A DNA stretch of 64,000 nucleotides, taken from the NCBI GenBank assembly GCA_029974595.1, contig JARKRC010000021.1, positions 1 through 64,000 on the forward strand, read 5' to 3'. The notes under the pieces were generated by a model. That model searched no databases and was not told where the DNA came from. It was given only the letters and a program-made list of their open reading frames with translations. The DNA comes from Ereboglobus sp. (GTDB lineage Bacteria > Verrucomicrobiota > Verrucomicrobiia > Opitutales > Opitutaceae). Below, in pieces: positions 34,926 to 64,000 of the stretch (the first letter of the stretch is position 1; every line of letters begins with the position of its first letter). Position numbers and translations under genes: made by a program.

Positions 34926-36425
34926 TTAATACGCATACGTGGTTTCTTCTTTGACGACGGAGCGCGGCAGCACGCCGGCGCCGAATTCAAAGCGGATGCC
35001 GCCAAGGCCCGGCTCGGCGGCTTGGGCGACTATTTTGAAGCTGATCGTGCTTTTGGGCTTGAGGTTCAAGTCCCGGACGACGATGCGCTGCCCGGAAACG
35101 TCGGCCCGGATGTTCTTGCTGATTTCCACGAAGCGCATGTTCGGCACCAGATCAAATATGGCATCGCCGGAGAGTTCGCGCATGGTGCTCTGGTTTGTGA
35201 TCTTGATGGTGTAGGTCACATTGGCGCCGATTTTGACGGGATCGACATCGTCGGCGACCTCGGTCAGCACGCCGGGAGCGCCTTCCCACGTCGTGGTGGC
35301 CGCAGCCTGGACGAAACGGCTGCCGGCGAAACGGGCGATTGCGTTTGCGGTGAGCGCGCCCTGTTTCTGGCCGGAGAGGACGACTTGGCGGCGCACGACT
35401 TCATTGGGGGCGATCCGGGGAATGACCCAGGTCACGTTGCCGGCGGAAATCCTGCCGTCATCAGTGGCGCTCAAGCAGCGCGCGCCGGAGGGGATTTCAT
35501 CGGAGAGCTGGATGTTTTCAACGGGCGTGAGACCTTCGTTGACGAGGGTGATGTCATAGGTGGCGCTCGAAAAGAGGAACGCATCCGCGGGGCCGGACTT
35601 GGTGATCGCGATTTTGGATTCGACAATGGAAACATGCGCGGAGGCGTTGGCCTGGATTTCCTGCGTGGAGAAAGCGTTGGCCCGGTTGTCCCATTCGCCG
35701 CGGATCGCGGCTTTCACCGGCACGTCGATGACGCGTGTCTCGCCGGCGGCGAGTGTGTCGATGCGATGTGTGATGACGTTGTTGCTGCGGTCCGGGCCGT
35801 AGAGTCCGGCGGGCAGGGTGTCGGTCACGATGACGTTGCGCGCCGGGGCATTGCCAACGTTGGACACGGTGAGACGGAAACTGATGTCATCGCCGAGCTC
35901 GGCTTGCGCCGGGCCGGTTTTGAAGAGTTCCAGTTTCGGACTGCCGGCAAAGAGCGGCAGGCCGATTGTCGGGACCACGGCGACCTTGGTGTTTGTGACA
36001 AACCAGCCGTCATTGGCGGGACGCACGGTGACGACGATGTCCTTGGTGGCGCCGCGCGTCATGTTGTTCCAGTCCCAGAGAAAGGAGCCGCCGCTGCTTT
36101 CGGAGGGAGCCGGAGAGGCTTCGACATATGCGAGGCCCGGCGGCAGCGCCTCGAGAAGGCGGACTTGGTCGATGTCGGCGAGCGCTTCAAACCGTATGCG
36201 GTAACGGACGTTCTCGCCGGCCATCTCGGTGGTCTCAATGATCTGCTTGTCGACCTTGAACCAGTCGGAGTTGAAGCGTGGCTGGGCGGATTGAGGCGCG
36301 GGCGGGCGGGTCTGGCGGACCGGCACGGGCTGCGCATCGGCTGCGCCGAGGGACGGTGTGATGGCGGCGAGGGCCAGAAGCAAGGCCGCGCGCGCCGGGA
36401 AGATGATGCGGTGTATATATATCAT
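34926..36425 (-). CDS. Exported DUF11-repeat protein
   Basis: This 499-aa protein has a signal peptide (about 1-34) and at least three tandem DUF11-type beta-sandwich repeats. They are recognised by GDDISFRLTVSNVGNAPARN, FSSATYDITLVNEGLTPVEN and GANVTYTIKITNQSTMRELS, each followed by a D-x-L/I-P-x-G-like strand. DUF11 repeats occur in bacterial surface proteins, including the chlamydial OmcB family, which is in the same superphylum. A structural role in the envelope or a surface layer is likely. It is the most distal minus-strand gene of the secretion/giant-protein cluster. The start at 36425 was chosen for the signal peptide. Confidence 0.8.
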   Translation of the reverse strand: MIYIHRIIFPARAALLLALAAITPSLGAADAQPVPVRQTRPPAPQSAQPRFNSDWFKVDKQIIETTEMAGENVRYRIRFEALADIDQVRLLEALPPGLAYVEASPAPSESSGGSFLWDWNNMTRGATKDIVVTVRPANDGWFVTNTKVAVVPTIGLPLFAGSPKLELFKTGPAQAELGDDISFRLTVSNVGNAPARNVIVTDTLPAGLYGPDRSNNVITHRIDTLAAGETRVIDVPVKAAIRGEWDNRANAFSTQEIQANASAHVSIVESKIAITKSGPADAFLFSSATYDITLVNEGLTPVENIQLSDEIPSGARCLSATDDGRISAGNVTWVIPRIAPNEVVRRQVVLSGQKQGALTANAIARFAGSRFVQAAATTTWEGAPGVLTEVADDVDPVKIGANVTYTIKITNQSTMRELSGDAIFDLVPNMRFVEISKNIRADVSGQRIVVRDLNLKPKSTISFKIVAQAAEPGLGGIRFEFGAGVLPRSVVKEETTYAY

Positions 36426-36477
36426 GTTTAATTTACTATATTGTTGGAAATCGGCCTGGTTTTGTATTATCAATAAA

Positions 36478-36882
36478 TCAGCGTTTGCGCTTCGTGGCGA
36501 TGCGCCAGGCATACCATTGCGCGACCCAGAGATTATAAAAGAACATGCCCATCCAGAACAGGAGCGACGCGAGGGACGCCATGGTGATTTCGCTGTGAAA
36601 AAAAACGATGGCCGCGACCATCATCAACGAGAGGAGCGCCAGGAAAAAAGTCGCGCGAACCTCGCGCCAATAGAGCACTTTCCAGCGGTTGCGCGGATTG
36701 GCGGGGGCGGCCTGCGGGCGCGCGGCGTCCGGCTGGGTGTGCATCGGATGCGTCCGCTTGAAATATTTCCACTGGAGCCACACGGAGGCGAATGCCACGA
36801 GCAGGCCGACGAAGCCGATGGCGGCATCGATAATGCGGCTGTCAACGGGCAGACTGAAGAGCGCTGGCAGGATCGTGATCAT
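36478..36882 (-). CDS. Small membrane protein of unknown function
   Basis: This 134-aa protein has three predicted membrane helices (about 18-40, 75-95 and 98-120) and a positively charged hydrophilic loop between the first two. I do not recognise a family. It lies 27 bp downstream of the giant gene and 52 bp upstream of the DUF11 gene on the same strand, so it may be an accessory of the secretion or surface system. The C-terminus is strongly basic (ATKRKR). Confidence 0.65.
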   Translation of the reverse strand: MITILPALFSLPVDSRIIDAAIGFVGLLVAFASVWLQWKYFKRTHPMHTQPDAARPQAAPANPRNRWKVLYWREVRATFFLALLSLMMVAAIVFFHSEITMASLASLLFWMGMFFYNLWVAQWYAWRIATKRKR

Positions 36883-36909: not shown

Positions 36910-39900
36910 TTATTTGTTTTTATCGTCGATGAAGTGACCGCTGCTCCTGTTCGTGGTTATGTCGTCATGCATGTCCTTGCCGCCTTTTATCCTGTCGCGC
37001 CTGTTGACGCCGCTGCCCGTGCCGCCATCGCCTTTCTTGAGATAAACCACGACGAGCGTCTGCAGATCCTTGAGCGTGACCTGGCGTTCCTCCCAACGCA
37101 GGCCGGTGTCGGGATCGGTGCCGGTGACGCTGGATGACGAGATGGTCGAGGCGCCGTCCGGCGGCTCCCAGTGATCCATCGCAAAGCCTGGATTTATCGT
37201 CACGCGGATGGTGACCACATCGCCGAGGTTCATGATGCCGCCCGGCGTGATGTCGCCGCCGACGGACTTGATGTCGATCTTGATTGAGGGATCGAACTCC
37301 AGCGTCGGATCCGTCAATTGCACCCGTGTCTGGAGCAGCGGATTGACTGTCCGGATGAGAGCGCGCGGATCGAGATTGGTCTCGACATACAGTTCCCACT
37401 GGCCGACTCCCGCAGGCTGGCGGTAGCGCTCCTGGATGTTTGTCCAGCCGTCGAAGCGGTAATTGGCAGGGTCTTTCACCGTGCAATGGAACAGGACCGT
37501 GGATTTGTCCGGGAAGTATTTCGTGATGAGCGGCGGCGCGTCGCCTCTTGCCACGGTGACGCCGTCGAGTGTCACCTTGTCCTCGCCGGACGGGTGGCAG
37601 ATGGAGAGGGAATCAAAGCCCAGGGTCACGCGCCAATCCGGCACTTTGGCCGAGAAGAAGGCGCCGATGACCTTGTCGTCGTCCATGTAAATCGTCGTAG
37701 TCGGGCTTGTTCCGGAGAGCGCGCCGAACCACTCCTTGAACGTGTAGCTACCCACGCCGGAAGCGGTCACGCTCACCGTGGCGCCCACGGGGAACAAGCC
37801 TCCCGTTGTGGCCAGATTGGCCGGCGTGTCCCCGGCGGGGGCAAGCACAACCGTGCCGGCATCGCCGGGCAGGGCGGACCATTGCAACAGCACCATTTTT
37901 CTCGCGACGAGGAAGTGCACTTCGCGCTGGTGGTCCAAGCCGGACGCCAACGCGGTGTAGGTCGCCGGCGCGCCTGAATTGTCGCGCGTGCTGACATCCC
38001 CGCTCCATCCGTTTCCTGAAATGGCATAGCCGGGGGCGGGATGCGCCACGATTTTGTAATCGCCATATTCATCCGGGCCTTCGATTGCGCTGATTGTCGC
38101 TGCCATGGGGTTGAGCACCTTGGTTGACATATCCGTCACTTCATAAACCAGCACTTTTGGCGGGAATGTCTCCTCGTTGGAGCGGAAAATGGCGTAGGCG
38201 ATGGTGTCCGCGCTCATGCTCACCGTGGTCGAGGGCGAGGTCGCGTTCGCGACGGCGCCGCCGGTCGCTTCCCAGCGGACGAATTGCCAGCCGCTGTTTG
38301 CCGTTGCGATCAGCGGCACGTTCCTGGGGGTTCCGTCGCCATTGTAGGCGTAGGTGCCGCCGCTGGAAACGGAGCCGCCGGCGGACGGCGAGGCATAGAC
38401 TTGCAGCGTGTAGCTGCGCGGTGTGAATTTCGCCGTCACGGTCTTGTTCGTGTCGAGGACGACACTGGTCGAGAGGACGGCGGGGTTGTTGATTGTCACC
38501 GGGCCGGTCCAGCCGGAGAATGCGAATCCCGGAGCGGGCGTCGCGGTGAGCTGGACGGTCGGGCTTCCGGTAAATGTCTTGGAATAAGAAACCGGATGCC
38601 CCGTGCCGTAACCTGCCGCGTCGGAGGGATCGCTGTTCATCTGCACGCTGCCGCCCAACGGGGGCGATGCGGAAATGGTGAGCGTGTTATAGACGGTCGT
38701 GATAAAGCGCGCGATGACGGTCTGGTCGGACTTCATCACGATGAACGTGTCCGCCGCATCCGGGTTGTTGACCGCGCCCGCCCAGCTTGCGAAGCTCGAT
38801 CCGGGTTTCGCCAAGGCCTCAAGGTTGACCTGAGTCCCGTAATCGAACTGGTATCCGGGCGGCGTGCCACCCACGAAGAGTCCGGCGGGCGATGTGATGC
38901 TGGCGGTGCCCTTGGATCCATCCGCCGGGTCGGTATCGACCTTGAGGATGCATACCCGGGTGAAGACTGCGCTGATGGTCGCGTCCCCGGTCACCGAGTG
39001 GGCGAACGAGTCGGGGAACGAACCGGAGGCCGGCTGCTGGACGGCGCGGCTGGCGGTTGTGTTCGCTCCCCAGCCCCAGCCGACAAAACGGTAGCCCGTG
39101 TAGGCCGCGCTGACATAGGGGCGCAGCACCGCGCCGTAGAAATACTGGCCGCTGCCATCGCCGCCGATCAAGCCGCCCGCGTTTGGCACGCCGAGGCCTT
39201 TTTCCCAGCGTTCGACGACGATGTTATATATACGACGGCGGAATTGCGGCGTGATGACGATGTCGCCGGCATCGGCCAGCGTGTCGTCGATGGTGAGCGT
39301 GAGGGTTGCCACGCTGATGTCCGCCGTGGTGGTCTCGCTGACAATCACGGACGAGGGCAGCGCGCTTGTTCCCCAACCTGCAAACTCGAACCCCGTCGCG
39401 GCGACCGCGGTGATGACTTTTGTCGCGGGGGTGCTGGTAACGTCGTAGCGATAAGTGCCCGGGGCGGGGTCAACCGTGCCGAACGGCGCGGGCGGGCAGG
39501 AATTCGCGGGCGTGACGTCCACGGCCGGGTTGATGGTTACCACGACTTGTCGAATGTAATTGGCCGTGATGTCCGCGTCCTTGTCGTAGGTGAACGTCAT
39601 GCCGGTGCCCGTGCCGAGCACCGTGAATCCTTCTTTCCACGAATCGAAGCGGTAGTGCGCGCCGGAGACGTCTTTCGGCGTGGTCGAGAGCTGCACTTGC
39701 GTCGGATAGAGGTGCTTCAAACTTGGGGAGTCCAAAAGGAAATCGTGGTCAAGAATTCCGCCGATGGTCGCGACGAGCGTCTGCGCGCCCGCGGCGGGCA
39801 CGGGTGTGACGGTGAGCGTGTAGGTTTTCGGCTGGAAGTGCGGCGCGACGGTCACGTCTTGCGTCATCGTGAAGCTGATTGTTTTCGGAGCCTCGGCTCC

Positions 39901-42900
39901 CGGGGCCGGAACGGGATTCGGCGTGACACCGGCGGAGATGTCGGGAGTGAAATCCCAACGATTCACGAAATAATGTTGCGAAGCCGGCGTGGCCGTCACC
40001 GTGGCGGTCGCGCCCTCGGCGAAGGTGTAGGTCTTGGAGCCGTCGCCGTTGGTGATGACGGTCGAATACGGGCTGTAACCGCTGACGCTGACGTCGCCGT
40101 TTTCAATGCCGGCGGGGATGGTGAGTTTCCACGCGTTGGCGAAGTTCGCGGTCACGTCGCGGTCGTTATCCATCGTGATAGTGAGGTTGCGGCCCGAGGG
40201 CGCGATGGCGTCGCCGGACCAGTGCGTGAAGATTTTTCCCGCGGCGTCGTTCGCGGTGAGCGTGACGACGGTGTTCGGCGCATACACGGTGGTTTTCGGC
40301 TGGCCTTGCGGGTCGGGCGAACCGGCGGGGCTGGCGGAAATCGAGCCGCCGCCGGACGGGCTCACATGCGCGCGGAGGCGGTAGAGGCTGCGGACGTATT
40401 GCGCGATGAGGGTGCGGTTGGTGACATTGTCGCTCACGCCGACGGTGAACGGCGAGCCATAGGTCGCGGTGTGCGTTGTGTCCGTCCATCTCCAGAACGC
40501 GTAATATGGCGCGGGATTTTGCGAGAGGGAGACGGAGGTGTTGTAGGCGATGGCGACGGTGTCGATGCCGCCGAGGAAATCGAACACGGATTCGGGGAAC
40601 GCGCCGGAGGCGGCGAGCGTGCTGGCGATGGGCGCGCCGTCGTAGGGCGCGGGATCGGCGGAATAGGGGCGCGCGGTGATGTCGTATTTTTTCGGCGCGT
40701 AGGCGGGCGTGAGCGTGTAGCTGCCGTCCATCATGAAGCTGATGCCGGCGTTTGTCAGGCTGTCCGGCGTTACGCCCGCCGGCGTGATTGGCGTGAACGT
40801 CCACGCGGTGAACTCGTAGTGCGGCGAGTCCGGCGTGGCCGTCACGGTGGCGTTCGAGCCTGCGACAAACGTGTAGGTCTTGGAGCCGTCACCATTGGTG
40901 ACAACGGTGGCGTAGGGGCTCGCGCCTTCGACGGTGACGGCGCCGAGCGCGTCATTCGGAATCGTGAGCGTATAGGCGGTGGCGAAGCTGGCGATGACTT
41001 CGCGGTCGTTGCTCATGGTGAGCGTGAGGGCGCGGCCAAGCGCGCCCGCGGCATCGGGGCCGCTCCAGCTGGTGAAGATGCTGCCGGGGGCATCCTGCGC
41101 GGTGAGCGTGACGGTGAGGGCGGGATTCGTGGCGTTGTAAACCGTCGTGTCGGGAGTGGCGAGCGGATCGGCTGCGCCCGCGAGCGAGTATCCAATCGAG
41201 CCGCCGCCCGAGGGCGCGATGTGCGCGGTGAGTTTCCAGACGCCGCGCACGATTTTCGCGATGCGCGTGGTGTCGGCTCCGGGCATGTTGAAGGTGAGGC
41301 TGGTGTTGGAGCCGTAATCGGGCGCGCCCGTCGCGTCGGTCCAGCGGTCGAACTTATAATAAGGCGCGATGGCGGCGTCGAGCGTCACGGCGGCGCCGTA
41401 GCGAATCGCCTTGGTCTGCGTCGCGAGGAAGTCGTGCGGCGAGCCGGGGAACGCGCCGGAGCCGGTGAGCGCGCTGACGACGGGCGCGCTCGGGTAGGGC
41501 GCGGGGTCGGCACAGACGTAGTTCACGGTGAGGTCGTAGGGCCTGGGCGAGAAGTTCGCCGTGGCCGTCACCAGATCGGGCGTGGTCGTCATGGTGAAGG
41601 TCTGCGTGTTGAGCGCGGAATTGCTCACGCCCGCGGGCGTGGCGGGATCGAAGGTCCAGTTGTCGAACTGGTGGTGCGCGGTGGCGGGCGTGGCGGTGAT
41701 GACGGCCTGCGCGCCGACCTTGAAAACGTAAAGGGTGTTGCCGGAGCCGTCGGTTTCCGTGCGGCGGTGGCCGCTGACGGCGACGCTGCCATAGGCGGGA
41801 TTCGGGTTCACGATTTTGAGGCGGACAATGTCAACAAAATGCGCCGTGACGGAACGATCCTGATTCATCGTGAGCGGGAGTTCGGGCGAGGCAGCGTTGG
41901 CCGTGCCGATGTTGCCGGTCCAGCCGTCGAAGTCGGTGTTCGTGTTATACGCGGCGGTGAGTGTGAGGGTGTCGCCCGCGTTGTGGATGCTGGGGTTGCC
42001 GCCGCGCGCGGGCGCGCTGTCGATTGTGCCGGAGCCATCGGGATCGATGGTGGTCGTGAGCAGGTATTGGTTGCGCGTAAACTCGGCGCGGATGGCGCGG
42101 TTGCCGCCGACGGTGAGCGTGCAGTTGTCCGCGTCGGCTCCGAGGGTCTGGCTCGTGCCGGCATCGCTCCAGCGTGCGAATTGATAATAATCCGCCGCAG
42201 CGGTCGAGAGCGTGAAGGTCGTGCCGTAGGGGAGCGTCCACGTCGCGCCGCCGTTGAGGAAGTCGTGCGTCGGCGGAATGACGCCGGTTGCCGTGCTCGA
42301 GCCATTCAACGCGGAGGCGATGGGCGTGCGCGGGTCGCTCGAATAAGGGGTGACCGTGATGGTGTAGTTTTTCGGCGTGAAGACGCCGCGAACGACGGTG
42401 TCGCCCGCAAGCGCGGGAATGGCGAGCGCCGGCGTGCTGACGTTTGGCTGCGCGACGCCGTCAACGGTGATTTCCCAATGCGAAAAATCGAAGTGCTGGC
42501 CGGGCGCGGCGGTGATGGTGAGCGCGGTGTTTTCGCGGTATTTGCCGGTGCGCGTCGCGACGCCGTTGGCGACGGCGGTCATCGGGCCGCCCGAGACGGG
42601 AGCCTGCGTGACGGCGACGCGGCTTTCCTCGGCGAAGGGCGACGGGGCGGCCTCGATCGTGACATCGTGGAGCTTCGCGTATCTGGCGGTGGCCTTGGTG
42701 TCGCCGTGGAGCGTGAGCGTGCTCGACGGCGAATTGATCTGGCGCGGCGCGGCGGCGGGATGGTCGTCATCGACGATTTCCCAATGCATGAAGTCCCAGC
42801 CGCTGTCGGTGCCCGCGATGATGCTCACTTGCGAGCCGTCCGTGAGGCGCGTGCCGGCGGGAAGCTCGGTGTAAACGCCCGCGGCGGGAGTGATCGTGGC

Positions 42901-45900
42901 GGCGGGCAGCGAGTCCGGATCGGTCGCCATGACGAGCGTGACGTTGCGCCCGAAATGCGCGCTCACGGTTTTCGGAAAATCAACCTGCACGGTGGCGGCG
43001 GACTGGCCGGCGGGCGCGGCATTGGCGAGGCTCGCGGGCGAAACCGTCCACCCGAGAAAGGTGTAACCGGCGTCGGGTATCGCGAGGACGCTCTGGATGC
43101 TGCCGTAGCCGAAGGTGCCGCTTTGCGAAAGCGCGCCGCCGGCGGGCAGGCCGTTGAGCTGGATTTTTCCGTGGGGCGCGCCGTCGATGCTGTCGGCGAC
43201 GTTGACGGTGATCTGCGATTGCTGCGCCTCGAAGACAACGGTGACCTTCGTCGGATAATCGAGCGAAAAGGCGGTCGTCTTGACGGCGGTGGAGTTGTCG
43301 CCGGGGACGATGGTTTTTGCGGAGTCGTCGTAAATGCCGTCGTTGTCGATGTCGCGCTCGATGATGATTTCCTTCACGACGTGGTATTCGGATGCCTGCG
43401 GCGTGGCGACGACGGTGATCTGGCGCTGGTAGTCGTATTTTTGCACGGGCGGGACCGGGATGCTTTCCGAGGCGGTGACCTGGATGCCGTGGTTGTTGGG
43501 ATCGCCCGCAGGGATTTCGATGACGGCCTTGTCGGCGCTCATCTGGCCGCCCGCGGGGACGATGGCGAGTGTGACGGGCATGAGGCGGACGAACACGGGC
43601 GTGGCTTCGCGGTCCTGCTGGAGCAACTGCGGCCAGTTGGCACTCCAGCCGAGCGTTTGCGTGCTCGCGGAGCCGAAGGTCGTCGTCCATCCGAGGAAGC
43701 GGTAGCTAGCCGGATCGCCGTTGGTCACGCTCAGGATCGGCGAGGTGGATTCGCGGACGCGTTTGCCTTGCCAGACAAAAGGCGCGGGCGCGGGATTGAT
43801 GATGCGATACGAGAAATGCGCGTCGTAAATGTTGCCGGAGGAAACCTGGAACGCGCCGGAGGCGTTGAAACCGGAGGACGGCACGGTCCATCCGGGGCCG
43901 GAGGGCTGCGTGAATTGCGTCGGGTGGATGCTGACGGTTTTCCAGTCGAGCGCGAGGTGGACGGTGACGACTTCGCTGACGCCCGCGGTCGATGGATTGG
44001 TCGTGAACGTGTTGCCGGTCGCGCCCGTGGTTACGCGCGCGCCGCCGATATCGTAATCCCATCCGACGATGCTGACGGGGCTGGCGAGGAATGCGGCGTC
44101 GGGCGAAAAGGTTTCGCTGTGCCCGGCGTGGAAGATGTGCGCGTCGATGAGGCGGCTGCCCGCGATGTAGAGCCACGGGATGCCGGAATCGGTCGTGTTG
44201 CCCGCGATGCGTCCGGGGATGTGGTTCGCCATCAGGCCGGGATAGGCGATGACGTCGTCAAACACGCCGCGCAGCGTGAGCCAGTAGCCGGGGATGTTGG
44301 CATAGACGGCGAGGATGCTGACCTCGGGCAGCGGGTTCAGGCCCTGCGGTTCGCTGTGCGTGAAGGTGGTGTCGTTGTTGTTGCGGTTGCCGAAGTCGGC
44401 GGCGGCGCAGCGCGAAATCGGCTCCCAATGGTGAAAGCCCCAGCCGCCGGAGGAACTGTCGGCGTGGATGTTGATCGTGCCGCTGGGCACCGCGACGATG
44501 TAAACGGGGCGTCCGGTTTCATCGACGGTATAGGTGCCCGCGTAGCCGGATGCGCTGACCGCGGTGATGAGCGGGTAGGTGTCGCCGGGGTGGTTTTGCT
44601 CGTCGGGCGAGGTGTAAATGCGCAGGAGGTAGTCGCCGCTTTTGGGCAGGAAGAGCGCGGTGACGCGCGTGACGGGCTGGGTGAGCGGGCTGTAAGTGCA
44701 ATCGAGGTTGCTGCTGATGACGGTGGGCGACATGCCGACACCGAGACGCCATCCGGCGAAATAATAATGATCGGTGTCGTGGTTTTCGGCGTGCAGGGCA
44801 GCGGTCGCGCCGTAGAAGAATTGATAGACCTTCGGCTCGGCGCCGGCGGCGCTTTGAAGAATGCCGTTCGTGCACTGGCCGACAAAATCGGCTGTGTTGG
44901 GCTGCGTATAGACCTCAAGGGTGACGCGGATTTTGTCGAAGACGGCCTTGAGAGTGGCCGGGGCGCTCATCGTGTGCGTGTAATCGGTCGCCGTGCTGAT
45001 GATGGAGCCGTCGAGTTCCCAGCCGACAAAAGTGTATCCGACAGCGGGCACGGCGCGGACGGTCGCGCTGCCGTTTTGCACGATGGTTTCGACGGAGTGG
45101 TCGAGAATGTTGATGACGCTGTTGTGGATGCCCGCGATGTTGCCCGCGCCCTTGGCGAGCGTCGTGCGCGAACCCGCGGCCTCGGCGTAGGTTTTCGGCG
45201 AGGTGCCGGGCGTGGCGCTGGTTTCGTATTTCGCAATGACGTCGAGGCGGTGGCCGGGGTCGAAGTTGGCGGTGACCGTCTTGGCATTTCCAACGGGGTC
45301 CATGAGGACGGAGGTGATCGACGCGCCGGGCGAGACTGCGGGGGAGCCGGTGTCCACGGTCCAGTTGCGGAAAACAAAATGGTCGATGTCGGAGCCGGAC
45401 AGATCGGCGGTGATCGCAACGGAGTCGCCGCGCAGGACGTCAGTGTGCGCGCCGACGCCCGGCGTGGTGATGCCGACGCCGGCGGGGCTGGTCGCCATGT
45501 AAAGCGTGATGCGCGATTTGTAGAGCGCGGTGAGGGTCTTGCTGCCGGCGGACATGGGGACGGAGCGCAGCGGGTTGCCGGCGGCAGGCACGGCGAGGTC
45601 TTCCCAAGCGAAGAAGGCGTATTCGAGCGCGGGCGCGCCGGTGGCGGTCGCGTCGAGCGCGGCGGTGTCGATGGGATAATATTTTTTTGTTTCCGTGGAA
45701 TGGAGCGCGGCCGGCGCGTCGTGTCCCGATACGGTGGAATCGCCCGCGAGGACGGTGAGCGGATGCGTCACGGGCACGAGCGCGCCGTCCACCTTGATGA
45801 GAATGGTGAGGTCGCGTTCTGCGCCGGTGAGCGAGAAGTGGCCGGTCACGATGCCGCCGCCGAGGACGGTGAGGCTGGCCGACGTCGAGCCTGCGTCGTC

Positions 45901-55644: not shown

Positions 55645-55841
55645 GAAACAGTCTCCTTCGTGTCATTGGCGGGACGAGCGGTCTTCTTTTTCCCGGGCTT
55701 CGCCCGCGCTGCTTTCTTGCGCCGATTTCCGGCATGCCTGCCCGTCCAGTTTTTCATGCCCGCCGCCATCCGGTTCAGAAGCTGCAACCGGGCGCGCGCC
55801 GCCCGCATTTCCTCGATGTTGCATTTCATATGATGCAACAT
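55641..55841 (-). CDS. Short basic protein (66 aa), start uncertain
   Basis: From ATG at 55841 the frame encodes MLHHMKCNIEEMRAARARLQ and then a Lys/Arg/Ala-rich tail (AARAKPGKKKTARPA). Its stop overlaps the next gene's start (ATGA), which supports translation of this frame. The same frame is protein-like further upstream (SENIPDVLSAIEKSIAAETT), up to the stop of the 312-aa coiled-coil gene at 55940, but has no ATG, GTG or TTG there. Either the short form is real, or the segment is joined to the upstream protein by a frameshift. Confidence 0.45.
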   Translation of the reverse strand: MLHHMKCNIEEMRAARARLQLLNRMAAGMKNWTGRHAGNRRKKAARAKPGKKKTARPANDTKETVS

Positions 55842-55939
55842 TTCGGAAAGAGCCGTCGTTTCAGCGGCGATGCTTTTCTCTATTGCAGAGAGGACATCGG
55901 GGATGTTTTCGCTCTCGGCGCCGGTGGCGGCGGGCGGGG

Positions 55940-56878
55940 CTACTTCACCTGGATGAACGTCTTTTCCATGAATTTGAAGGGCTGCGCTTCCGGCGGTATC
56001 TCGACGAACACCCCGCCGGTCTCCCCCTTCACGAGTTTGAAACGGAATTGCTCCTGCAACTCCTGCAGCCGGGATATGTTCTGCTGGAGCGTGTTCAGGT
56101 TGGCCATCAGGCTGGCTTGGGAGGCGGTCGCCTGCTTGGTTTCCGTTTCCGCGGCCTGCTTCTGGCTTTTCAGCGTATCGATCTCCTTCTGAATCGCAGC
56201 CTTTTGGTTCTGAAGCGCCGTGATTTCCGCGGTCAGCGCCGATTTTTGGGAAATCGCCTGATCGCGAGCCTTCAGATCGTTGCTGCTGACCAGCGCCGCC
56301 CCGCCCAGAAAATACAGTGCCGCCACCGCTCCCAGACACAGGAGGACGCATGCCAATGCTGCGACCATCACGGATTTCTTCACTTGCGTCTGGGAAGCCT
56401 GCGCCGAGCGGCGCACGTCTTCCTGCAGGGTCTTCGTCGTCTCCTCCTGCTTGGCGGCGATCTCCTTCGAAATGGCCTGCTGTCCCTTGGAAATGGTCTC
56501 GATGACCTGCGGGTCCGTGGCCGGCGGCTGCTCGAGTCTCAACTTCAGGGTGCGCAATTCCTCCGCCGTCTGGGCGGTCGTGGCCGTAAATTCCGCCTGG
56601 TTGGATTGGGCACTCTGCTTGATCTCCACCATGGCATTGAGCATTTCCGCGTGCTGGGCCAGCGTTTGCTGATTGATCTCCTTGAGCTTCGCTTCGAGTT
56701 CCTCCGAATTCGTGGCCTTGGTGTTGCTCACGAGCGCGTGCATCACGTCCATCATCTCTTCCCGGCATATCGTCCGGAAGCGCTCGAAGAGAGTGCGCCT
56801 CCATTCGAGCTCCATCTCCTGAAGCCGCAGTTCGGCCCTCTGTTGAAACTGGGTCGGTTGGCTTGATTCGTTCGACAT
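55940..56878 (-). CDS. Membrane-anchored coiled-coil protein
   Basis: This 312-aa protein has an N-terminal hydrophilic helical region (1-165), one transmembrane helix (about 170-192) and a periplasmic coiled coil (about 205-285; LTAEITALQNQKAAIQKEID), then a short beta end (VFVEIPPEAQPF). It has no signal peptide, so the topology is N-in/C-out. A good Shine-Dalgarno (AGAAGGA, 7 nt spacing) sets the start. It may be a scaffold or spacer in the secretion apparatus. The plus-one frame is also open through the whole gene, but its translation there is Gly/Arg/Asp-rich and looks like a shadow. Confidence 0.82.
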   Translation of the reverse strand: MSNESSQPTQFQQRAELRLQEMELEWRRTLFERFRTICREEMMDVMHALVSNTKATNSEELEAKLKEINQQTLAQHAEMLNAMVEIKQSAQSNQAEFTATTAQTAEELRTLKLRLEQPPATDPQVIETISKGQQAISKEIAAKQEETTKTLQEDVRRSAQASQTQVKKSVMVAALACVLLCLGAVAALYFLGGAALVSSNDLKARDQAISQKSALTAEITALQNQKAAIQKEIDTLKSQKQAAETETKQATASQASLMANLNTLQQNISRLQELQEQFRFKLVKGETGGVFVEIPPEAQPFKFMEKTFIQVK

Positions 56879-56885
56879 AATAAAT

Positions 56886-56892
56886 TCCTTCT
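56886..56892 (-). promoter_or_regulatory. Ribosome binding site deciding the start of the coiled-coil protein
   Basis: AGAAGGA on the minus strand lies 7 nt before ATG at 56878. In-frame stops (TAG at 56891-56893 and TAA at 56903-56905) exclude any longer protein in this frame. Confidence 0.7.
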
Positions 56893-56902
56893 ATTTCTTC
56901 AA

Positions 56903-57116
56903 TTAGGCAGCTTTCTTCATTCTCGCAATCACGCACTCTCCATGAGGACGGGCCTGCATTTGTGACTTCCGCGCCAAGCCGCGCCATTTCGCGCAGGAAA
57001 TTGTCCCGGCGCGTTTCGGTCGGAGCATCATCGGAGGCGGAAAGGACGATGCACTGGTGCATTATTCGCATCACCAAGTCCACCATCATGCTCATGCTGT
57101 TGTTCGAGTCGCTCAT
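56903..57116 (-). other. Short reading frame, apparently frameshifted (about 70 aa if joined)
   Basis: An ATG at 57116, 9 bp after the previous stop, opens MSDSNNSMSMMVDLVMRIMH and continues protein-like to about MARLGAEVTNAG. This frame then has no stop until 55641. In the next frame the sequence reads QARPHGECVIARMKKAA and stops at 56903-56905, leaving a normal 24-bp gap with an RBS before the coiled-coil gene. A one-base shift near 56955 would join the two into one small gene. It is either an error, a pseudogene or a frameshifted gene. Confidence 0.35.
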
Positions 57117-57125: not shown

Positions 57126-57752
57126 TTATTTGGCAAGGCTCAAGAGCGTGCTTGCCCTTTGGATTTTCGTGGCCAGCGCCTCCGCCTGCTGTTGCAGGGC
57201 GAACAATTCGCGGCGCGTGGCTTCGACTTCGTTTTTCATCGCGAGCCTCTGCTGTTCCAGCGAGTCGATCTCGGACTTGAGCAGATCCACGCGCTGCACC
57301 AGCTGCAGCCGTTTGCGCATCAGCTGCGCCTGCAACGGGTCATTGGTGAAGACTTGCGCAAAAGTCGGATTGCCATACTCGGCGGCGATCTGCTCGACGG
57401 CGATGCGCATGCGCGCGATCATCTCGGGGTTCTGCGCGGGCTTTGCCGCGGCTGGCCTTGGCTCTGGAGCCGGCGCGGCAGCGGCCATCAGGGAGGGCTG
57501 CAGGCGGGCATCGAGGCGTTCCTGTCCCGGCTGGCGCTGCGGGACGGCGGCATGGCGGGCGTCGCCGGTGCTCGAAGCGTTTGCGATCTGCGAAGCGCCC
57601 GACGCGGCGACAACTTCGTCGAGGGTGGAATTGCCCCTGGACGGTATGACAAGGGGGCGCTGAAGGATTACGCGCTGCTGCGCGCGCAGCATGCCGCCGC
57701 CAATGCATAACAGCATAAACGCAATGATTATTCGTGCCGTATTTGTTTTCAT
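57126..57752 (-). CDS. Secreted coiled-coil protein of unknown function
   Basis: This 208-aa protein has a signal peptide (about 1-25), a low-complexity Ala/Pro linker (about 90-108) and a C-terminal coiled coil (about 145-208) with heptads such as LKSEIDSLEQQRLAMKNEVE. No enzymatic motif is visible. It lies 7 bp downstream of the PilO/GspM-like gene and is probably a periplasmic structural part of the apparatus. I do not recognise a named family. Confidence 0.78.
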   Translation of the reverse strand: MKTNTARIIIAFMLLCIGGGMLRAQQRVILQRPLVIPSRGNSTLDEVVAASGASQIANASSTGDARHAAVPQRQPGQERLDARLQPSLMAAAAPAPEPRPAAAKPAQNPEMIARMRIAVEQIAAEYGNPTFAQVFTNDPLQAQLMRKRLQLVQRVDLLKSEIDSLEQQRLAMKNEVEATRRELFALQQQAEALATKIQRASTLLSLAK

Positions 57753-57759
57753 ATATAAA

Positions 57760-58314
57760 TTATTTCACTTCGCTTGGTTTTTGAATGTATATGGTAAATG
57801 AAAAGGCGACCCGGCTGAACTCGCGCTTGTTGTTGTCGCCGACGGTCTGGATGTCCACCTGCGTGAGGGCGAGCGAGCTCATCTTCTTCATCCTGCCGGT
57901 CAGATCCAGAATCTCCGGCCATGCGGACACGGGCACGCTGCCTCTCGCGATCTGGTAGCGGCGGCTTATATACTCCTCGTTCGGCGCCTCCGACTTGGAA
58001 ACGACCGACCACGCGGGGCGCAGGCTTGCGATGAAGCGATCCACGGCCTCGCCGGACTGCATCGACTCCCTGAGCCGGGTGGCGCGCTCCCGCGCCTGCG
58101 TGGCTTTCTGCTCCGAAAACGCCTGGTTTAGCGATGCGATGGACGCCTGGTGCGCCCTGATGCTGCCGGCCAGGCGCTTTTTCGTGCTTTGGTTGCCATT
58201 GCTTGTATCATAATAATAATAACCGAGCCCGAGGCAGAGCACGAACAGCATTCCGGCAAGTCCCGCCCATAACGGCGAGATGTGATATGTGGTTTTCTGT
58301 TGTTTGATATTCAT
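57760..58314 (-). CDS. PilO/GspM-like inner-membrane protein
   Basis: This 184-aa protein has a short cytoplasmic N-terminus, one membrane helix (about 14-33), a periplasmic coiled coil (about 44-75) and a ferredoxin-like C-terminal domain (ALTQVDIQTVGDNN ... VAFSFTIYIQ). This layout matches PilO/GspM, which pair with PilN/GspL in the alignment subcomplex. It lies 19 bp downstream of the PilM/GspL-like gene, as expected. Sequence identity to characterised members is not obvious by eye. Confidence 0.75.
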   Translation of the reverse strand: MNIKQQKTTYHISPLWAGLAGMLFVLCLGLGYYYYDTSNGNQSTKKRLAGSIRAHQASIASLNQAFSEQKATQARERATRLRESMQSGEAVDRFIASLRPAWSVVSKSEAPNEEYISRRYQIARGSVPVSAWPEILDLTGRMKKMSSLALTQVDIQTVGDNNKREFSRVAFSFTIYIQKPSEVK

Positions 58315-58333
58315 TTATTATCAACGCGCCGGG

Positions 58334-59680: not shown

Positions 59681-59750
59681 TTTATAATAATGAATATTGC
59701 AGGTTATCCAGTCTGCGACTGTCTACACTTGTTGTTCTTATTAGACAATT

Positions 59751-59778: not shown

Positions 59779-59788
59779 GGTAATTACA

Positions 59789-59837: not shown

Positions 59838-59844
59838 GGGATCA

Positions 59845-60636
59845 TTAGAATGACGCGAGGTAGTAATAAACCGTCGTGGTCGTTTCGGTGCCGGTGGGCG
59901 CTTTGTAAACGAGGCGTCCGGCGAACTGGTCGTCCTGGAATTCCGACTGGTCCAGGGATCCGTTGAGCTCGGCGGAGAGCTTCTTGGCATCCTTGAGCGA
60001 AACATTGGTCAGCACAACCAAGGCAACGCGCGCAGCCTTGAGGGGCGAGACGCCGTCAAGGTAGAAGTTCGCCTTTTCAGAGCCAGCCGTCGTCGCATCG
60101 ATCGGGAGGGCGGCCGGAGCGCCGGCAGTAGCGGTGATATCGCAGGGCCAGCACACGGTGCGGTTATAGGCAGACCAGTCATTGCCGGCGCCAACAGTGG
60201 CGCCATTGTAAGTGCCCGAGGTGACCCAGGCATTGCGGCTGAGGGCGAAAGGATATTCAGCGGCCAGGTTGACTTGCGTGTTGCCATCACTGCCAACGCG
60301 CCAGCCGAGCTGGCGGTCGATAAGGCCGGAAGCGCGGAGCGGCTGGTCGAGTGTCATCTTGGTATCAGCCGTCGTCGGTGTGACCGCAGTGCCACTCCAG
60401 ACACCAACGGTGCCCGTTGTGAGCGGAACCGTGCCGCCCGAGTTCGGGAGAGCGACGAAGCCGACGACAGCGGTCTCGAGGTTCTTGAAGTTAGCGACGG
60501 TCGCGACGATGCGAGCGCGATTGATGGCGGCGAGAACGCCGACGGCGATCACCGAGATAAGAATCGCGATGATGGCGAGAACACCTAGCATTTCAACGAG
60601 GGTGAAGCCCTTGTTGGAGTTTTTGATCTGTTTCAT
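59845..60636 (-). CDS. gspG: Major pseudopilin, GspG/PilA-like
   Basis: This 263-aa protein has the classic class III signal NSNKG|FTLVEMLGVLAIIAIL, with Gly10 at -1 and Glu15 at +5. After the N-terminal helix (to about 50) the globular domain is Thr/Ala/Gly-rich and beta-stranded. At 263 aa it is longer than typical GspG (about 140), so it may be a T4P-like major pilin. It follows the ATPase stop by only 1 bp and is followed by strong hairpins, consistent with high expression. The gspG symbol reflects class, not proven orthology. Confidence 0.88.
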   Translation of the reverse strand: MKQIKNSNKGFTLVEMLGVLAIIAILISVIAVGVLAAINRARIVATVANFKNLETAVVGFVALPNSGGTVPLTTGTVGVWSGTAVTPTTADTKMTLDQPLRASGLIDRQLGWRVGSDGNTQVNLAAEYPFALSRNAWVTSGTYNGATVGAGNDWSAYNRTVCWPCDITATAGAPAALPIDATTAGSEKANFYLDGVSPLKAARVALVVLTNVSLKDAKKLSAELNGSLDQSEFQDDQFAGRLVYKAPTGTETTTTVYYYLASF

Positions 60637-60637
60637 T

Positions 60638-62443
60638 TTATGTTGTTTTACTGGTTGTTGTTACGGGTTCCGCGTCATCCGACTCGGTTTGCGCAATCAC
60701 CTCCTCGATGGAGGTCTGTCCCTGCACGGCCTTGATAAAGCCGTCTTGGCGCAGGTTGCGGAAAATAGAGCTTCCGTTTAGCTCAGTTTCGCTTGCACAA
60801 AGTTTCCTCGCGAGCGCCTCGCACTCGCGCAATGCGTCCTTGCCCAGCCGCACAATGATGTCTGCGAAGGGCTCGACCGGGCGGCACTCGTAAAGTCCCA
60901 CGCGGCCTTTGTATCCGGCGCCACCGCACACTGCGCAGCCGCCTGGTTTTGGACGATACAGGGTTTCCCCTGCCTGAAGTATGATTCCGTGTATCTCCGC
61001 GAGAGCCGCGCTTTGCGGATGCGGCTCCTTGCAGGAGCACAGGCGGCGGATGAGCCGCTGCGACACGAAAAGATTGACCGCGCCAATGATCACGCTCGGC
61101 TCCACGCCGATGTCGATCAACCGCGCAATGCCGCCGAGCGCGGTGTTGGCGTGCAACGTCGAAAAGCCCGTGTGGCCCGTGAGCGCGGCGCGCATCGAGA
61201 GTTCCGCCGTCTCCCTGTCGCGCGTCTCGCCGACAAGGATGTAATCGGGGTCCTGGCGCAGGAGCGAGCGCAAGCCCAGCCCAAACGTGAGCGACTCGGT
61301 GACCTCGGTCTGCCGGATGTTGCGGAACTCGTATTCGATCGGGTCCTCCAGCGTCATCATGGTGTAGTTGGTGACGTCGAGGGTGTTGATGATGGAATAC
61401 AGCGAGGTCGTCTTGCCCGAGCCCGTGGGGCCTACAAAATAGGTGAAGCCAAAGGGCGCGTTGGCGGCGGCGAGGATCGCCGCCTTTGTGTCCTCCAGCA
61501 TTCCCAGTTTTTCGAGCGGGACGATGCCCTTGGACTGGTCGAGGATACGGATGACAATGCTTTCGCCGAACAGCGTGGGAAGCGATGAGAAGCGCAGGTT
61601 GATTTTCTTGCCGGCGACGATGAGTTTTGCGCGCCCGTCCTGGGGAATGTGCCGCACCGCAATGTCCAGGTTGCCTTTCATCTTGATGCGCGCGGCAACC
61701 GATTCGCGCGTGCTGGTATCCACGACCTTGTAGGGGTGCATCACCCCGTCGATTCGGAATTTGATCTGCGTCAGCGTTTCCTCCGGAACGATGTGGATGT
61801 CGGACACTCCCATGTTCACGGCGTCGGCCACGAGCATGTCGAAGAAACGGCCCGGATCGGAAACGTCAGCCCTCGATGCGTAGATGTCGTCGAGTTTTGC
61901 GAGAACCTCGGCCTCGAGCGCGATGTGGAAATCAAAATCGGTGATCCCAAAGCGTCCGAGCGTCTGCGTGACTTCGGCGAATCCCGGGATGGACGGATCG
62001 CTTACCGCCAGGCTGATTTGCGCGCCTGCGCGCTTGAGCGGCACGACGCGCATGCGGCGCGCGAGCGTCGGCGGCAGCAAACGGGTTACATCGGGCGCCA
62101 CGCGGATGCCGGACAGCGAAATCACCGGCAGTTTGTGATGCTCGGCGATCAATTTCGCCATGCTCGTGGGCGTGAGAATGCCGAGCTCCACGAGCACCGT
62201 GCCAAAACTCACGCGGCGTCCCTGCTGGTTATAATAATCCGTGGCGAGCTTGATGCTGGAAGCGCCGACTCCCTGTTTGCGCAGTGCCTGCGGCATCCAC
62301 AGAAAATCGCTCTCCTGACGGGCGGCCGGGTTCATCAAATTCCCGCCCGAAGCCTGCGCCGGGCTACCGGCATCGGCCTCCCTTGAGGGAGCCGTTGTCG
62401 AGGGCGCGGAAGCCGCGGGTTTATGGGTGCCGTGAATGGACAT
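60638..62443 (-). CDS. gspE: GspE/PilB-family assembly ATPase
   Basis: This 601-aa hexameric AAA-type ATPase drives pseudopilin assembly at the inner membrane. It has an N-terminal GspE-N domain (about 75-190) and a C-terminal motor. Walker A is GPTGSGKTT (338-346), the Asp box is TLEDPIEYEF, Walker B is DPDYILVGETRD and the His box is TGHTGFSTLH. A cysteine zinc region (LCSCKE ... CAVCGGAGYKG) is also typical. The disordered N-terminal 45 residues make it slightly longer than usual. No PilT-like retraction ATPase is in the window, which favours secretion or one-way assembly. Confidence 0.95.
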   Translation of the reverse strand: MSIHGTHKPAASAPSTTAPSREADAGSPAQASGGNLMNPAARQESDFLWMPQALRKQGVGASSIKLATDYYNQQGRRVSFGTVLVELGILTPTSMAKLIAEHHKLPVISLSGIRVAPDVTRLLPPTLARRMRVVPLKRAGAQISLAVSDPSIPGFAEVTQTLGRFGITDFDFHIALEAEVLAKLDDIYASRADVSDPGRFFDMLVADAVNMGVSDIHIVPEETLTQIKFRIDGVMHPYKVVDTSTRESVAARIKMKGNLDIAVRHIPQDGRAKLIVAGKKINLRFSSLPTLFGESIVIRILDQSKGIVPLEKLGMLEDTKAAILAAANAPFGFTYFVGPTGSGKTTSLYSIINTLDVTNYTMMTLEDPIEYEFRNIRQTEVTESLTFGLGLRSLLRQDPDYILVGETRDRETAELSMRAALTGHTGFSTLHANTALGGIARLIDIGVEPSVIIGAVNLFVSQRLIRRLCSCKEPHPQSAALAEIHGIILQAGETLYRPKPGGCAVCGGAGYKGRVGLYECRPVEPFADIIVRLGKDALRECEALARKLCASETELNGSSIFRNLRQDGFIKAVQGQTSIEEVIAQTESDDAEPVTTTSKTT

Positions 62444-62461
62444 TATAAAAGGGATGCGGTT

Positions 62462-64000
62462 TTAATCGAGCAGCGAGATGGCTTCGACCGGCGCGCTTGA
62501 TTGCGCTCCGGAACGCGCGGACGGACGGGCGTTTGGAAAATTTGTCGCGGCAGGAGCCACGGAGTGCTGGGTGGAACGGATTGCGCGGCTGTTTCGCTCG
62601 GCCTCGGTCCGGTCCTGCGCCGACAGACTTGCGCCGGGCACAAGGATTCGGGGCGTGAGCATGATTACCAACTCGGTCTTGGTTTTGATTTTCCCTTCCG
62701 ATCTAAAGGCCCGTCCGATGAGCGGTATTTTGCTCAATCCGGGGACGCCGCGCACCGAATCAACGATCGAGTCGGTCACCAAGCCGCCGATGATCGCGGT
62801 TTCACCCGAGCGCAGGCGCACGATGGTGGACGTTGTTTTCACATAAAGCGCGGGGGCTTTCATCCTGCCGTTTGCGGCTTCGATTTCCTGCTTCAAACGT
62901 GTGATGGCGGGCGTGACGTCGAGCGTGATGTCGCCGTTGTCCGCAATGTGGGGCGTGATCGCCACCAGCGTGCCGATGGAGATCGTCTGGACGTCATATT
63001 GCTCGCTGGTGAGGAGATTGTCATTGTTCGCGCCCACGGTTTGCGCCGTGCTGGAGCGAATCTGGAAATAGGGGCGGTCCTCGGTGTCTTTGATATACGC
63101 CGTCTGGTTGTTGATTGTGATGATGCGCGGGGCTGTGACGGTGTTGAGGTTGCCTTGCTCGGAAAGCGCCTGGAGCACCATGCCGAGTTTGCCCGAGCTG
63201 ATCGTGCCGGCGAAGGTGTCGGGGTTGAAATTGAATCCTCCCAGATTCGTGCTCGTCATGTTGGTATTGGTGAAGGCGCCGCTGACGGTTTTTTGCACTG
63301 CGCCTGCCGTTGTGCTCAGGGGAGTCGCGATTTGGGTCGCGCCGATGATCAAATTGCCGATGGAGGTCGTCGCCTGCGACCAGTCGATGCCCAGCTTGTG
63401 CTGGTCGAGCAGCTGGACCTCGACGATTTTGCCCACAATCTCGACTTGCTGGCCGATGCGCTCGTTGACCGTCGAGAGAAAGCGATTGAGATGGTCGTGG
63501 GTATGGCGCGATGCCGTGGCAACAATGGTGCCCGAGAAACGATCGAACACGATTCGCTCATCCTCCCGCTTGAACTGCTGGATTTCCGTTTCGAGGGTTT
63601 TCCAAAACTGGTTGTCGTTGGTCTGCTCAAGCGTGACGCTTGCCTCATCCTTCTGCCCCGTGGCGCTTCCTCCGGTGCTGCCGCCGCTTGCTTGCGCGGC
63701 GTTATAGTTTGTCTGCCCGAGGTTGACCGTGGCTTTCGAGCTGCCCTTGCGTTCAAGCTGGGGATACTCGACCTGATAGATTATTGTCTTGAAACGTCTT
63801 ACGGTCACATAACCCGTCTGTTCGAGATTCCAATAAAAGCCTTCGGAAGCGCAGAGCGCATCGAGTATTCCGCGCAACGAGATATTGTGAAACTCGACAT
63901 TCACGTCGCCTTTCACGTCCTTGTCGCACATGATGCTGATGCCGTAGGCGCGCCCCAGCGACTGGAACACCTTGTCGATCGGTTGGGAATCCTGGCTGAA
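62462..64000 (-). CDS. gspD: Secretin (GspD/PilQ-like outer-membrane channel), 5' end outside window
   Basis: The frame is open to the window edge, so only the C-terminal 512 residues are seen. They start with a secretin N-domain (DVNVEFHNISLRGILDALC), then N-type ring domains (IVATASRHTHDHLNRFLSTV; VEIVGKIVEVQLLDQ). The secretin barrel signature follows: RLRSGETAIIGGLVTDS, VPGLSKIPLIGRAFRSEGK and TELVIMLTPRIL. The tail after about 450 is Ser/Ala-rich. It forms the outer-membrane pore of the machine. The stop lies 18 bp before gspE. Confidence 0.93.
   Translation of the reverse strand, partial: FSQDSQPIDKVFQSLGRAYGISIMCDKDVKGDVNVEFHNISLRGILDALCASEGFYWNLEQTGYVTVRRFKTIIYQVEYPQLERKGSSKATVNLGQTNYNAAQASGGSTGGSATGQKDEASVTLEQTNDNQFWKTLETEIQQFKREDERIVFDRFSGTIVATASRHTHDHLNRFLSTVNERIGQQVEIVGKIVEVQLLDQHKLGIDWSQATTSIGNLIIGATQIATPLSTTAGAVQKTVSGAFTNTNMTSTNLGGFNFNPDTFAGTISSGKLGMVLQALSEQGNLNTVTAPRIITINNQTAYIKDTEDRPYFQIRSSTAQTVGANNDNLLTSEQYDVQTISIGTLVAITPHIADNGDITLDVTPAITRLKQEIEAANGRMKAPALYVKTTSTIVRLRSGETAIIGGLVTDSIVDSVRGVPGLSKIPLIGRAFRSEGKIKTKTELVIMLTPRILVPGASLSAQDRTEAERNSRAIRSTQHSVAPAATNFPNARPSARSGAQSSAPVEAISLLD

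What the first reader, a model, noticed from the sequence alone, without database searches (positions are those of the whole stretch)
34926..64000. A pilus/T2SS-like machine fused in one long cluster to a giant InlB-repeat protein
From the secretin at the right edge to the DUF11 gene, every confident gene is on the minus strand with short gaps. The machine parts (secretin, ATPase, F protein, L/M-like proteins, two pseudopilins) run straight into a 4-repeat and a ~50-repeat InlB-type protein, then a membrane protein and a DUF11 surface protein. Secretion clusters rarely carry such a cargo-like gene. The inference is a dedicated system that exports or anchors a giant extracellular fibre, or whose pseudopilus interacts with it. 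I know of no named system with this layout.
Basis: partly seen in the sequence, partly recalled or inferred. Interest (0 to 1): 0.8.

Follow-up and report, generated by a model that had tools for sequence, protein, structure and literature searches.

The report
Pilus-like machine with giant surface protein
Some bacteria of the family Opitutaceae, at least one of them from a termite gut, carry one gene cluster that pairs a type IV pilus-like machine with a giant repeat protein of about 4,000-4,900 amino acids, and a related machine in the family usually sits beside a smaller protein with the same repeat, which suggests that putting this protein on the cell surface is part of the machine's job.

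Summary
On the minus strand 15 main genes run from a PilT-like ATPase just beyond the window (contig 64163-65314) to a DUF11 gene (34926), with gaps of at most 52 bp except one of 164 bp. They encode a type IV filament machine, a 4-repeat and a 4,867-aa B-repeat protein, a small membrane protein and a DUF11 protein. The order recurs in all 4 other genomes found whose sequence reaches that far (three genera in all), among them termite isolate TAV5; one giant is frame-broken.

A second, more distant machine of the family has F - pilin - cargo - secretin - ATPase - pilin - L. Of 35 assessable clusters, 34 (24 genomes, 12 genera) have a cargo gene in that slot; 30 cargos are long enough to judge and all 30 carry B-repeats. 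None of 24 control loci does. A third, closer machine type (7 loci) lacks it. So the link is real and broad, but not universal; the giant form was seen in three genera only.

Most likely the protein is exported or displayed through the secretin with pilin 2 as adaptor; this is inferred. Best models are PilT (over cut-off) and MshL (below), pointing to a pilus. Side finding: a 312-aa gene nested in a 491-aa frame kept open in 7 of 7 genomes.

The parts
62462..64000 (-). Secretin; the gene runs on to about 64150 on the contig; the PilT-like ATPase at contig 64163-65314 lies beyond the window edge
   Evidence: PF00263 5.9e-39; best NCBIfam model MshL 200 of 250.2 bits, PilQ 146, GspD 140.5, all below cut-off; PilT: TIGR01420 348.6 over 319.1 bits, PDB PilT 2.4e-76 against GspE 1.8e-28
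60638..62443 (-). Assembly ATPase, closest to PilB
   Evidence: PF00437 2.8e-96, MshEN 6.9e-11; best PDB matches PilB 2.7e-94, GspE 2.5e-77; PilB model 395 of 675.65 bits, GspE 366.5 of 630.25
59845..60636 (-). Pilin 1, 263 aa (probable major pilin)
   Evidence: PF07963 6.2e-07; GspG model 27.2 of 88.85 bits
58334..59680 (-). GspL/PilM-N-like inner-membrane protein, 448 aa
   Evidence: no Pfam match; predicted actin-like domain, long helix, C-terminal domain, pLDDT 60; Foldseek actin-like kinases, EpsL 1yf5 at 1.6e-3
57760..58314 (-). GspM/PilO-like membrane protein, 184 aa (by position and topology only)
   Evidence: 36-51% identity in 6 relatives; no Pfam match
57126..57752 (-). Signal-peptide and coiled-coil protein, 208 aa
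   Evidence: only weak coiled-coil Pfam matches; conserved in relatives
55641..57116 (-). 491-aa container frame: conserved N-terminal domain, variable middle, Lys/Ala-rich C-terminus
   Evidence: open across the nested gene in 7 of 7 genomes; in one (G244) the frame then runs off the contig
55940..56878 (-). 312-aa membrane/coiled-coil gene nested in the container, other frame
   Evidence: 45-59% identity in 6 relatives; stop-avoidance tests; no family over cut-off
54991..55644 (-). GspC/PilP-like periplasmic protein, 217 aa (inferred from its conserved C-terminal segment and position)
   Evidence: 41-49% identity in 4 relatives; no Pfam or PDB match of weight
53744..54958 (-). Platform protein F (GspF/PilC)
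   Evidence: PF00482 1.1e-45; GspF model 248.3 of 424 bits
52598..53731 (-). Pilin 2, 377 aa, minor-pilin candidate with a large C-terminal domain
   Evidence: PF07963 4.4e-07; model pLDDT 54, no fold match
51549..52547 (-). Secreted 4-repeat B-repeat protein
   Evidence: PF18998 5.8e-36, 4 stretches
36910..51513 (-). Giant B-repeat protein, 4867 aa with N-terminal signal-like segment
   Evidence: PF18998 5.6e-226; relatives and C-terminal tails
36478..36882 (-). 134-aa membrane protein
   Evidence: 52-64% identity in the 4 relatives that reach this far
34926..36425 (-). Secreted DUF11 protein; last gene of the conserved cluster
   Evidence: PF01345 2.2e-33; conserved in 4 relatives

Best explanation
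The cluster encodes a type IV pilus-family machine that puts B-repeat proteins on the cell surface. Shown: the machine genes, the repeat genes, their conserved order, and the recurrence of a B-repeat cargo in a related machine. Inferred: the 4-repeat and giant proteins pass the inner membrane by Sec, are picked up in the periplasm by a pilus or short pilus whose tip holds pilin 2, and leave through the secretin as the PilB-like motor adds pilins and PilT removes them. The giant then acts as a long adhesive thread attached to the pilus or outer surface, perhaps held by its C-terminal tail together with the DUF11 and 134-aa proteins. In the giant-bearing group a cargo of the size seen in relatives (0.4-1.7 thousand aa) would have grown to 3.9-4.9 thousand aa, perhaps for attachment in the gut.
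For: Order from PilT to DUF11 conserved in 5 of 5 genomes whose sequence reaches that far, in 3 genera. In the second machine type the slot between pilin 2 and secretin holds a cargo gene in 34 of 35 assessable clusters: 26 are seen to be flanked by both, 7 abut the secretin on contigs cut before pilin 2, and one (L120) follows pilin 2 with no secretin called; they come from 24 genomes and 12 genera. All 30 cargos of 403-1700 aa have B-repeats (28 by local model; 2 more by Pfam). No B-repeat by the local model in 24 control loci; 28/35 against 0/24, Fisher 1.2e-10. The ATPase tree groups this machine with these related ones apart from the other clusters. PilT is over its cut-off, the best secretin model is MshL and the ATPase has an MshEN domain. 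Of the three T2SSE-family ATPases over the cut-off in the genome this cluster's is the only PilT-like one, and one PF01478 peptidase was found. The giant diverges faster than the motor (33-41% against 85% for the ATPase, G000 to G003), as exposed proteins do; pilin 1 is also low (44%).
Against: No experiment or localisation signal shows that this secretin exports these proteins. In the ATPase tree the nearest relatives of this machine are those of genus g64, whose 7 loci (several on short contigs) hold no B-repeat, and three other L-bearing loci (L136, L144, L149) lack one too. PilT was not seen beside the second machine type. In 5 of 5 PilT sequences of this cluster the stretch aligned to AIRNLIRE reads AVAGAIRE; PilTs of other clusters in the family also depart from it but keep LIR[E/D] (meaning of the motif recalled). 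Only 9 of the 24 control loci have a called secretin, so they control for neighbourhoods of such ATPases more than for complete secretion clusters. The cargos of the two types share the repeat but not the tail, so common descent is not shown; support for joining the two types is 0.74. Clusters within a genus are not independent. Pilin 2 could not be modelled well.
Confidence: 0.5

Rival explanations
1. A T2SS-type system: the pseudopilus stays periplasmic and pushes the B-repeat proteins out as ordinary folded substrates, which are released or attach to the surface by themselves.
For: The best NCBIfam model for F is GspF and the pilins have GspG among their matches, all below cut-off; the L-like protein matches EpsL weakly in fold; no PilT was seen beside the second machine type.
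Against: PilT is over its cut-off and secretin and ATPase score best against MshL and PilB rather than GspD and GspE, though below cut-offs; only two prepilin motifs were found in the cluster; a chain of about 50 domains is far larger than usual T2SS substrates (recalled).
Confidence: 0.2
2. The machine is an ordinary pilus for motility, attachment or DNA uptake, and the B-repeat, membrane and DUF11 genes are co-expressed surface proteins exported by another route.
For: Machine and repeat genes are only shown to be neighbours; g64 machines and L136 have no cargo gene; B-repeats also occur in two RCC1-repeat proteins of the genome away from the cluster.
Against: 34 of 35 second-type clusters keep a cargo gene next to pilin 2 and/or secretin, and the local model finds B-repeats in 28 of 35 against 0 of 24 control loci; no other export gene was recognised in the conserved cluster.
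Confidence: 0.22
3. Neighbourhood by chance or hitch-hiking in one clonal lineage.
For: Only three genera were found with the giant.
Against: Giants of different genera are about 28-37% identical in matching stretches yet in the same place, and a cargo sits in the matching slot in 12 genera, one of which (g68) also has the giant.
Confidence: 0.03

Closest known systems
MSHA-type type IV pilus (MshL, MshE; gene set and MshQ recalled)
   Same: best secretin model is MshL (200 of 250.2 bits) and the ATPase has an MshEN domain over its cut-off; the msh locus also holds minor pilins and a large MshQ protein (recalled)
   Different: MshL cut-off not reached; PilT inside the cluster; B-repeat cargo; MshQ was not compared here
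Type IVa pilus with PilY1 and minor pilins (Myxococcus xanthus; PMC7541494, abstract and passages seen)
   Same: PilB, PilT, PilC, secretin, pilins; a large protein encoded near minor pilin genes; that paper calls PilY1.3 an analog of T2SS substrates
   Different: the partner here is a B-repeat protein; PilY1 search in the genome was uninformative; gene order differs and two prepilin motifs only
Type IVb pilus operons with a secreted protein gene (TcpF of tcp, CofJ of cof; recalled, the paper looked up is not held)
   Same: secreted protein encoded inside the pilus operon and linked to a minor pilin
   Different: cargo there is small and soluble; here up to 4,867 aa of B-repeats
Type II secretion system with a partner substrate (pullulanase PulA of Klebsiella; PMC10790770, passages seen for PulA as substrate; gene location recalled)
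   Same: secretin, E, F, L-like protein, pseudopilin-like proteins, a partner substrate
   Different: PilT present; GspD, GspE, GspF and GspG models all below cut-off; few prepilins
Giant adhesins such as SiiE (PMC6272769, search listing with start of abstract only)
   Same: giant adhesin tied to one export system
   Different: SiiE uses type I secretion; no type I genes were recognised here
InlB B-repeat proteins (PF18998, PF09479)
   Same: repeat family PF18998, far above the cut-off
   Different: Listeria InlB is Gram-positive and small (recalled); here the protein is tied to an outer-membrane machine

Membership tests
Type IV pilus machine | T2SSE-family ATPase, F/PilC platform, secretin, prepilin | tested here: met
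   Pfam cut-offs passed; PilB is the best PDB and NCBIfam match of the ATPase but below the PilB cut-off
Type IV pilus machine | PilT retraction ATPase | tested here: met
   TIGR01420 348.6 over 319.1 bits; adjacent in 5 of 5 full clusters
Type IV pilus machine | AIRNLIRE stretch of PilT (recalled as important for retraction) | tested here: not met
   AVAGAIRE in 5 of 5 sequences; 6 other PilTs of the family also depart from it
Type IV pilus machine | PilM, PilN, PilO, PilP alignment complex | tested here: inconclusive
   candidates by position; actin-like fold for one, no family match
Type IV pilus machine | surface pilus | not testable with these tools
   needs microscopy
MSHA pilus | MshL equivalog model over cut-off | tested here: not met
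   200 of 250.2 bits, yet the best of 9 models
MSHA pilus | MshEN domain on the ATPase | tested here: met
   PF05157 42.4 over 23.1 bits
Type II secretion system | equivalog models GspD, GspE, GspF, GspG over cut-off | tested here: not met
   140.5 of 351.35, 366.5 of 630.25, 248.3 of 424, 27.2 of 88.85 bits
Type II secretion system | set of five pseudopilins G-K | tested here: not met
   two prepilin motifs among the 16 cluster proteins scanned with Pfam; rest of the genome not scanned for prepilins
Type II secretion system | no retraction ATPase | tested here: not met
   PilT in the cluster
InlB B-repeat (PF18998) | score over the family cut-off | tested here: met
   731.6 and 122.8 against 23.6 bits
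PilY1 adhesin | PF05567 domain | tested here: inconclusive
   no match in the genome, but the control search rang nowhere; the giant shows only PF18998

The most novel reading that the evidence does not exclude
An unnamed branch of type IV filament machines, seen here in one family (Opitutaceae), whose recurrent partner is a B-repeat surface protein; in three genera it would display a half-megadalton thread through a secretin served by a retraction motor. I know of no giant adhesin handled by a pilus machine rather than by type I or type V secretion (recalled, not searched in depth).
Probability: 0.35. Interest if true: 0.8.

Novelty: new variant of a known kind. Interest (0 to 1): 0.6.

Why it matters
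It ties a repeat of unclear export route in Gram-negative bacteria to a specific machine, with a testable partner (pilin 2). TAV5 is an isolate from a termite hindgut (PMC4358385, abstract), so gene removal could be tried. If right, it shows a pilus machine handling a protein of nearly 5,000 residues and gives a candidate colonisation factor for gut Verrucomicrobiota.

Tried and rejected
Naming the L-, M- and C-like proteins by sequence: no Pfam, NCBIfam or PDB match of weight for them (PDB only for L and C). Pilin 2 model: pLDDT 54, matches meaningless. PilY1 in the genome: nothing, but the control rang nowhere, so not used. Container-frame selection test: amino-acid identity in the nested stretch is no higher than in control genes, so only stop avoidance, not residue conservation, supports the second frame there; fourfold-site identity is somewhat raised in the three pairs between genera (0.58-0.61) but not in G000-G003 (0.42), with 33-50 sites. 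Control genes have stop-free 300-codon windows in that frame in up to about 20% of windows, and one TAV5 gene throughout, so one genome alone would not convince; five control genes were skipped there because my coordinates were out of frame. Promoter and terminator scan of 50500-64000: 12 promoter-like sites against 5.2 expected, 21 terminator-like against 17.3; not used.

Counting rules. The first Fisher figure (28/31 against 0/18) was replaced by 28/35 against 0/24 after a stricter count. The 200-bit line for second-type L proteins was set by me after seeing the list; lower hits such as G207 (101.6 bits) and G098 (62.6) were not inspected, and G188:C45 (300.6 bits) was not fetched. Kept out of both groups: the G007 plasmid locus (one weak B-repeat, E 8e-5), the 7 g64 loci, L144, L149, L147. 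Of the 24 control loci 9 have a called secretin (L158-L160, L168, G012, G015, G035, G006, G000C72) and a few show no ATPase by my gene caller (L153, L156, L165, L166; L159 shows only a weak secretin). Whole-phylum searches (387 genomes drawn evenly) found no strong hit outside the family; one search gave two weak ones (20-21 bits). The scan of 84,980 species by back-translated patterns gave 3 loci, a method that may miss distant relatives and may leave out the window's own genome.
Full report
What is there. The window is bases 1-64000 of a 97,524-bp contig of a 4.07-Mb genome. On the minus strand a run of 15 main genes goes from a PilT-like ATPase (contig 64163-65314, outside the window) through secretin, PilB-like ATPase, pilin 1, an L-like protein, an M-like protein, a coiled-coil protein, the container frame, a C/P-like protein, F, pilin 2, a 4-repeat protein, the giant, a 134-aa membrane protein and a DUF11 protein ending at 34926. 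Gaps are -4 to 52 bp apart from one of 164 bp. The next gene, a LacI-type regulator, has no counterpart at that place in G001 and G003, so the conserved cluster ends with DUF11. The genome has two secretins over the cut-off, three T2SSE-family ATPases over the cut-off, of which the PilT-like one lies here, and one PF01478 prepilin peptidase, on another contig beside the second secretin cluster. By NCBIfam the PilT model is reached (348.6 over 319.1 bits); the secretin scores best with MshL (200 of 250.2) before PilQ (146 of 284.35) and GspD (140.5 of 351.35), and the ATPase with PilB before GspE, all below cut-off.

Relatives with the giant. A profile of the 448-aa L-like protein (4 rows) was searched in 252 genomes of the family: 7 hits above 600 bits in three genera, 33 further genomes with weak hits. 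G007 has contigs of 7,317,842 and 99,831 bp, the sizes given for termite-hindgut isolate Opitutaceae TAV5 in the abstract of PMC4358385 (search listing), whose text has no mention of pili or secretion (word search); hence the family name used here. Five genomes (window, G001, G003, G007, G243) have sequence reaching the end of the cluster; in all five the order from PilT to DUF11 is the same, with a 4-repeat gene and a giant of 4867, 4096 plus an N-terminal piece in another frame, 4389, 3888 and at least 3876 aa. G244, G245 and locus L107 (MAG TD116_bin50) end before the repeat genes; G002, a 65%-complete genome of the same genus, gave no hit. Giants hold 34-49 repeats by the lenient local model at 92-98 aa median spacing, and their C-terminal tails are alike in the three of one genus and loosely so in the other two. 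Tandem Repeats Finder reports only one 21-base, two-copy row inside the giant and repeats within it are at most 65% identical over short matches, so the array is old.

Relatives with a smaller cargo. The weak hits led to a second machine type. I fetched all listed weak places and 18 loci with an E-type ATPase hit as controls. In the second type the order is F, pilin 2, cargo, secretin, E, pilin 1, L. A profile of its L protein finds 39 places above 200 bits in the family; 38 of these are in fetched loci, of which 3 end too early to judge (L118, L124, L128). Of the 35 assessable, 34 have the cargo gene: 26 between pilin 2 and secretin, 7 next to the secretin where the contig stops before pilin 2, and one (L120) after pilin 2 with no secretin called; L136 of TAV5 has none. 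Four of the 34 are contig-end fragments of 81-103 aa recognised by their tail. The 34 lie in 24 genomes and 12 genera. The other 30 cargos (403-1700 aa, two of them cut by the contig end) all have B-repeats, 28 by a local model built from 23 window repeats and two more by Pfam. Most, not all, end in a tail like YRxxxRTLL...VLEKP; L120 and L143 differ most. The 24 control loci (18 plus six other clusters) hold no B-repeat by the local model; 9 of them have a called secretin. A third type, in genus g64 (7 loci, some on short contigs), and loci L144 and L149 have no B-repeat. In a FastTree tree of ATPases the window's machine groups with g64 (0.94), then with the second type and L144/L149 (0.74), apart from the other clusters. 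So a B-repeat partner is either old with losses or was acquired twice; the tree does not decide.

Reading. The link between this branch of machines and B-repeat proteins is thus not an accident of one genome. In both cargo-bearing types the repeat gene follows pilin 2. PilT and the MshL/PilB-like scores make a pilus the better model than a T2SS for the giant-bearing type, with the caution that its PilT reads AVAGAIRE where the aligned PilT reads AIRNLIRE. PMC7541494 (abstract and passages) describes PilY1 with minor pilins as a tip complex and calls PilY1.3 an analog of T2SS substrates; the present cargo may fill that role. Sec export is inferred from N-terminal signal-like segments read by eye. 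Secretion through this secretin, the adaptor role of pilin 2, surface display and gut attachment are inferred.

Overlap. The frame 55641-57116 and the nested gene 55940-56878 both recur in 7 of 7 genomes of three genera. The container frame has no stop across the nested gene, where synonymous shuffles expect 2.5-5.4 stops; shuffles give zero stops in 0.06-0.46% of trials in six genomes and in 4.6% in TAV5. Both ends of the container are alike in kind (N-terminal domain; Lys-rich C-terminus), though in G244 the contig stops before its end. Residue identity of the container frame inside the overlap is not raised over controls. I read it as a real second frame whose middle only needs to stay open, but genomes within a genus are not independent.

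Literature. Ten searches of the held library showed, in their listings, no description of such a cluster; most subscription papers are not held and the listings were capped, so this is weak evidence for novelty.

Noticed in passing
window 55641-57116 and 55940-56878, minus strand: A complete 312-aa gene lies inside a 491-aa frame that is free of stops across it in 7 of 7 genomes of three genera; likely true overlapping genes.
   Followed up: yes
contig 64163-65314 (L003), minus strand: The PilT-like protein and its 4 orthologues read AVAGAIRE where the aligned PilT reads AIRNLIRE; other PilTs of the family also depart from it but keep LIR[E/D]. Retraction may differ.
   Followed up: partly
G007 plasmid contig C2, about 47700-59000: TAV5's 99,831-bp plasmid carries an E-type ATPase, a weak L-like hit and a protein with one weak B-repeat within about 12 kb.
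   Followed up: no
G000 contigs C19 (13626-19127) and C32 (216-2930): The genome's other B-repeats over the cut-off sit in two RCC1-repeat, Ig-like proteins away from this cluster.
   Followed up: partly
G001 C1:1001708-1014837: The giant of this genome is split over two reading frames; sequencing error or real break unknown.
   Followed up: partly
window 38284-46344, plus strand: A 2,686-aa frame stays open antisense to the giant gene, most likely a by-product of codon bias.
   Followed up: no
L136 (G007 C1:5181500-5201499): The one assessable second-type machine without a cargo gene is in TAV5, which also has the giant cluster.
   Followed up: no
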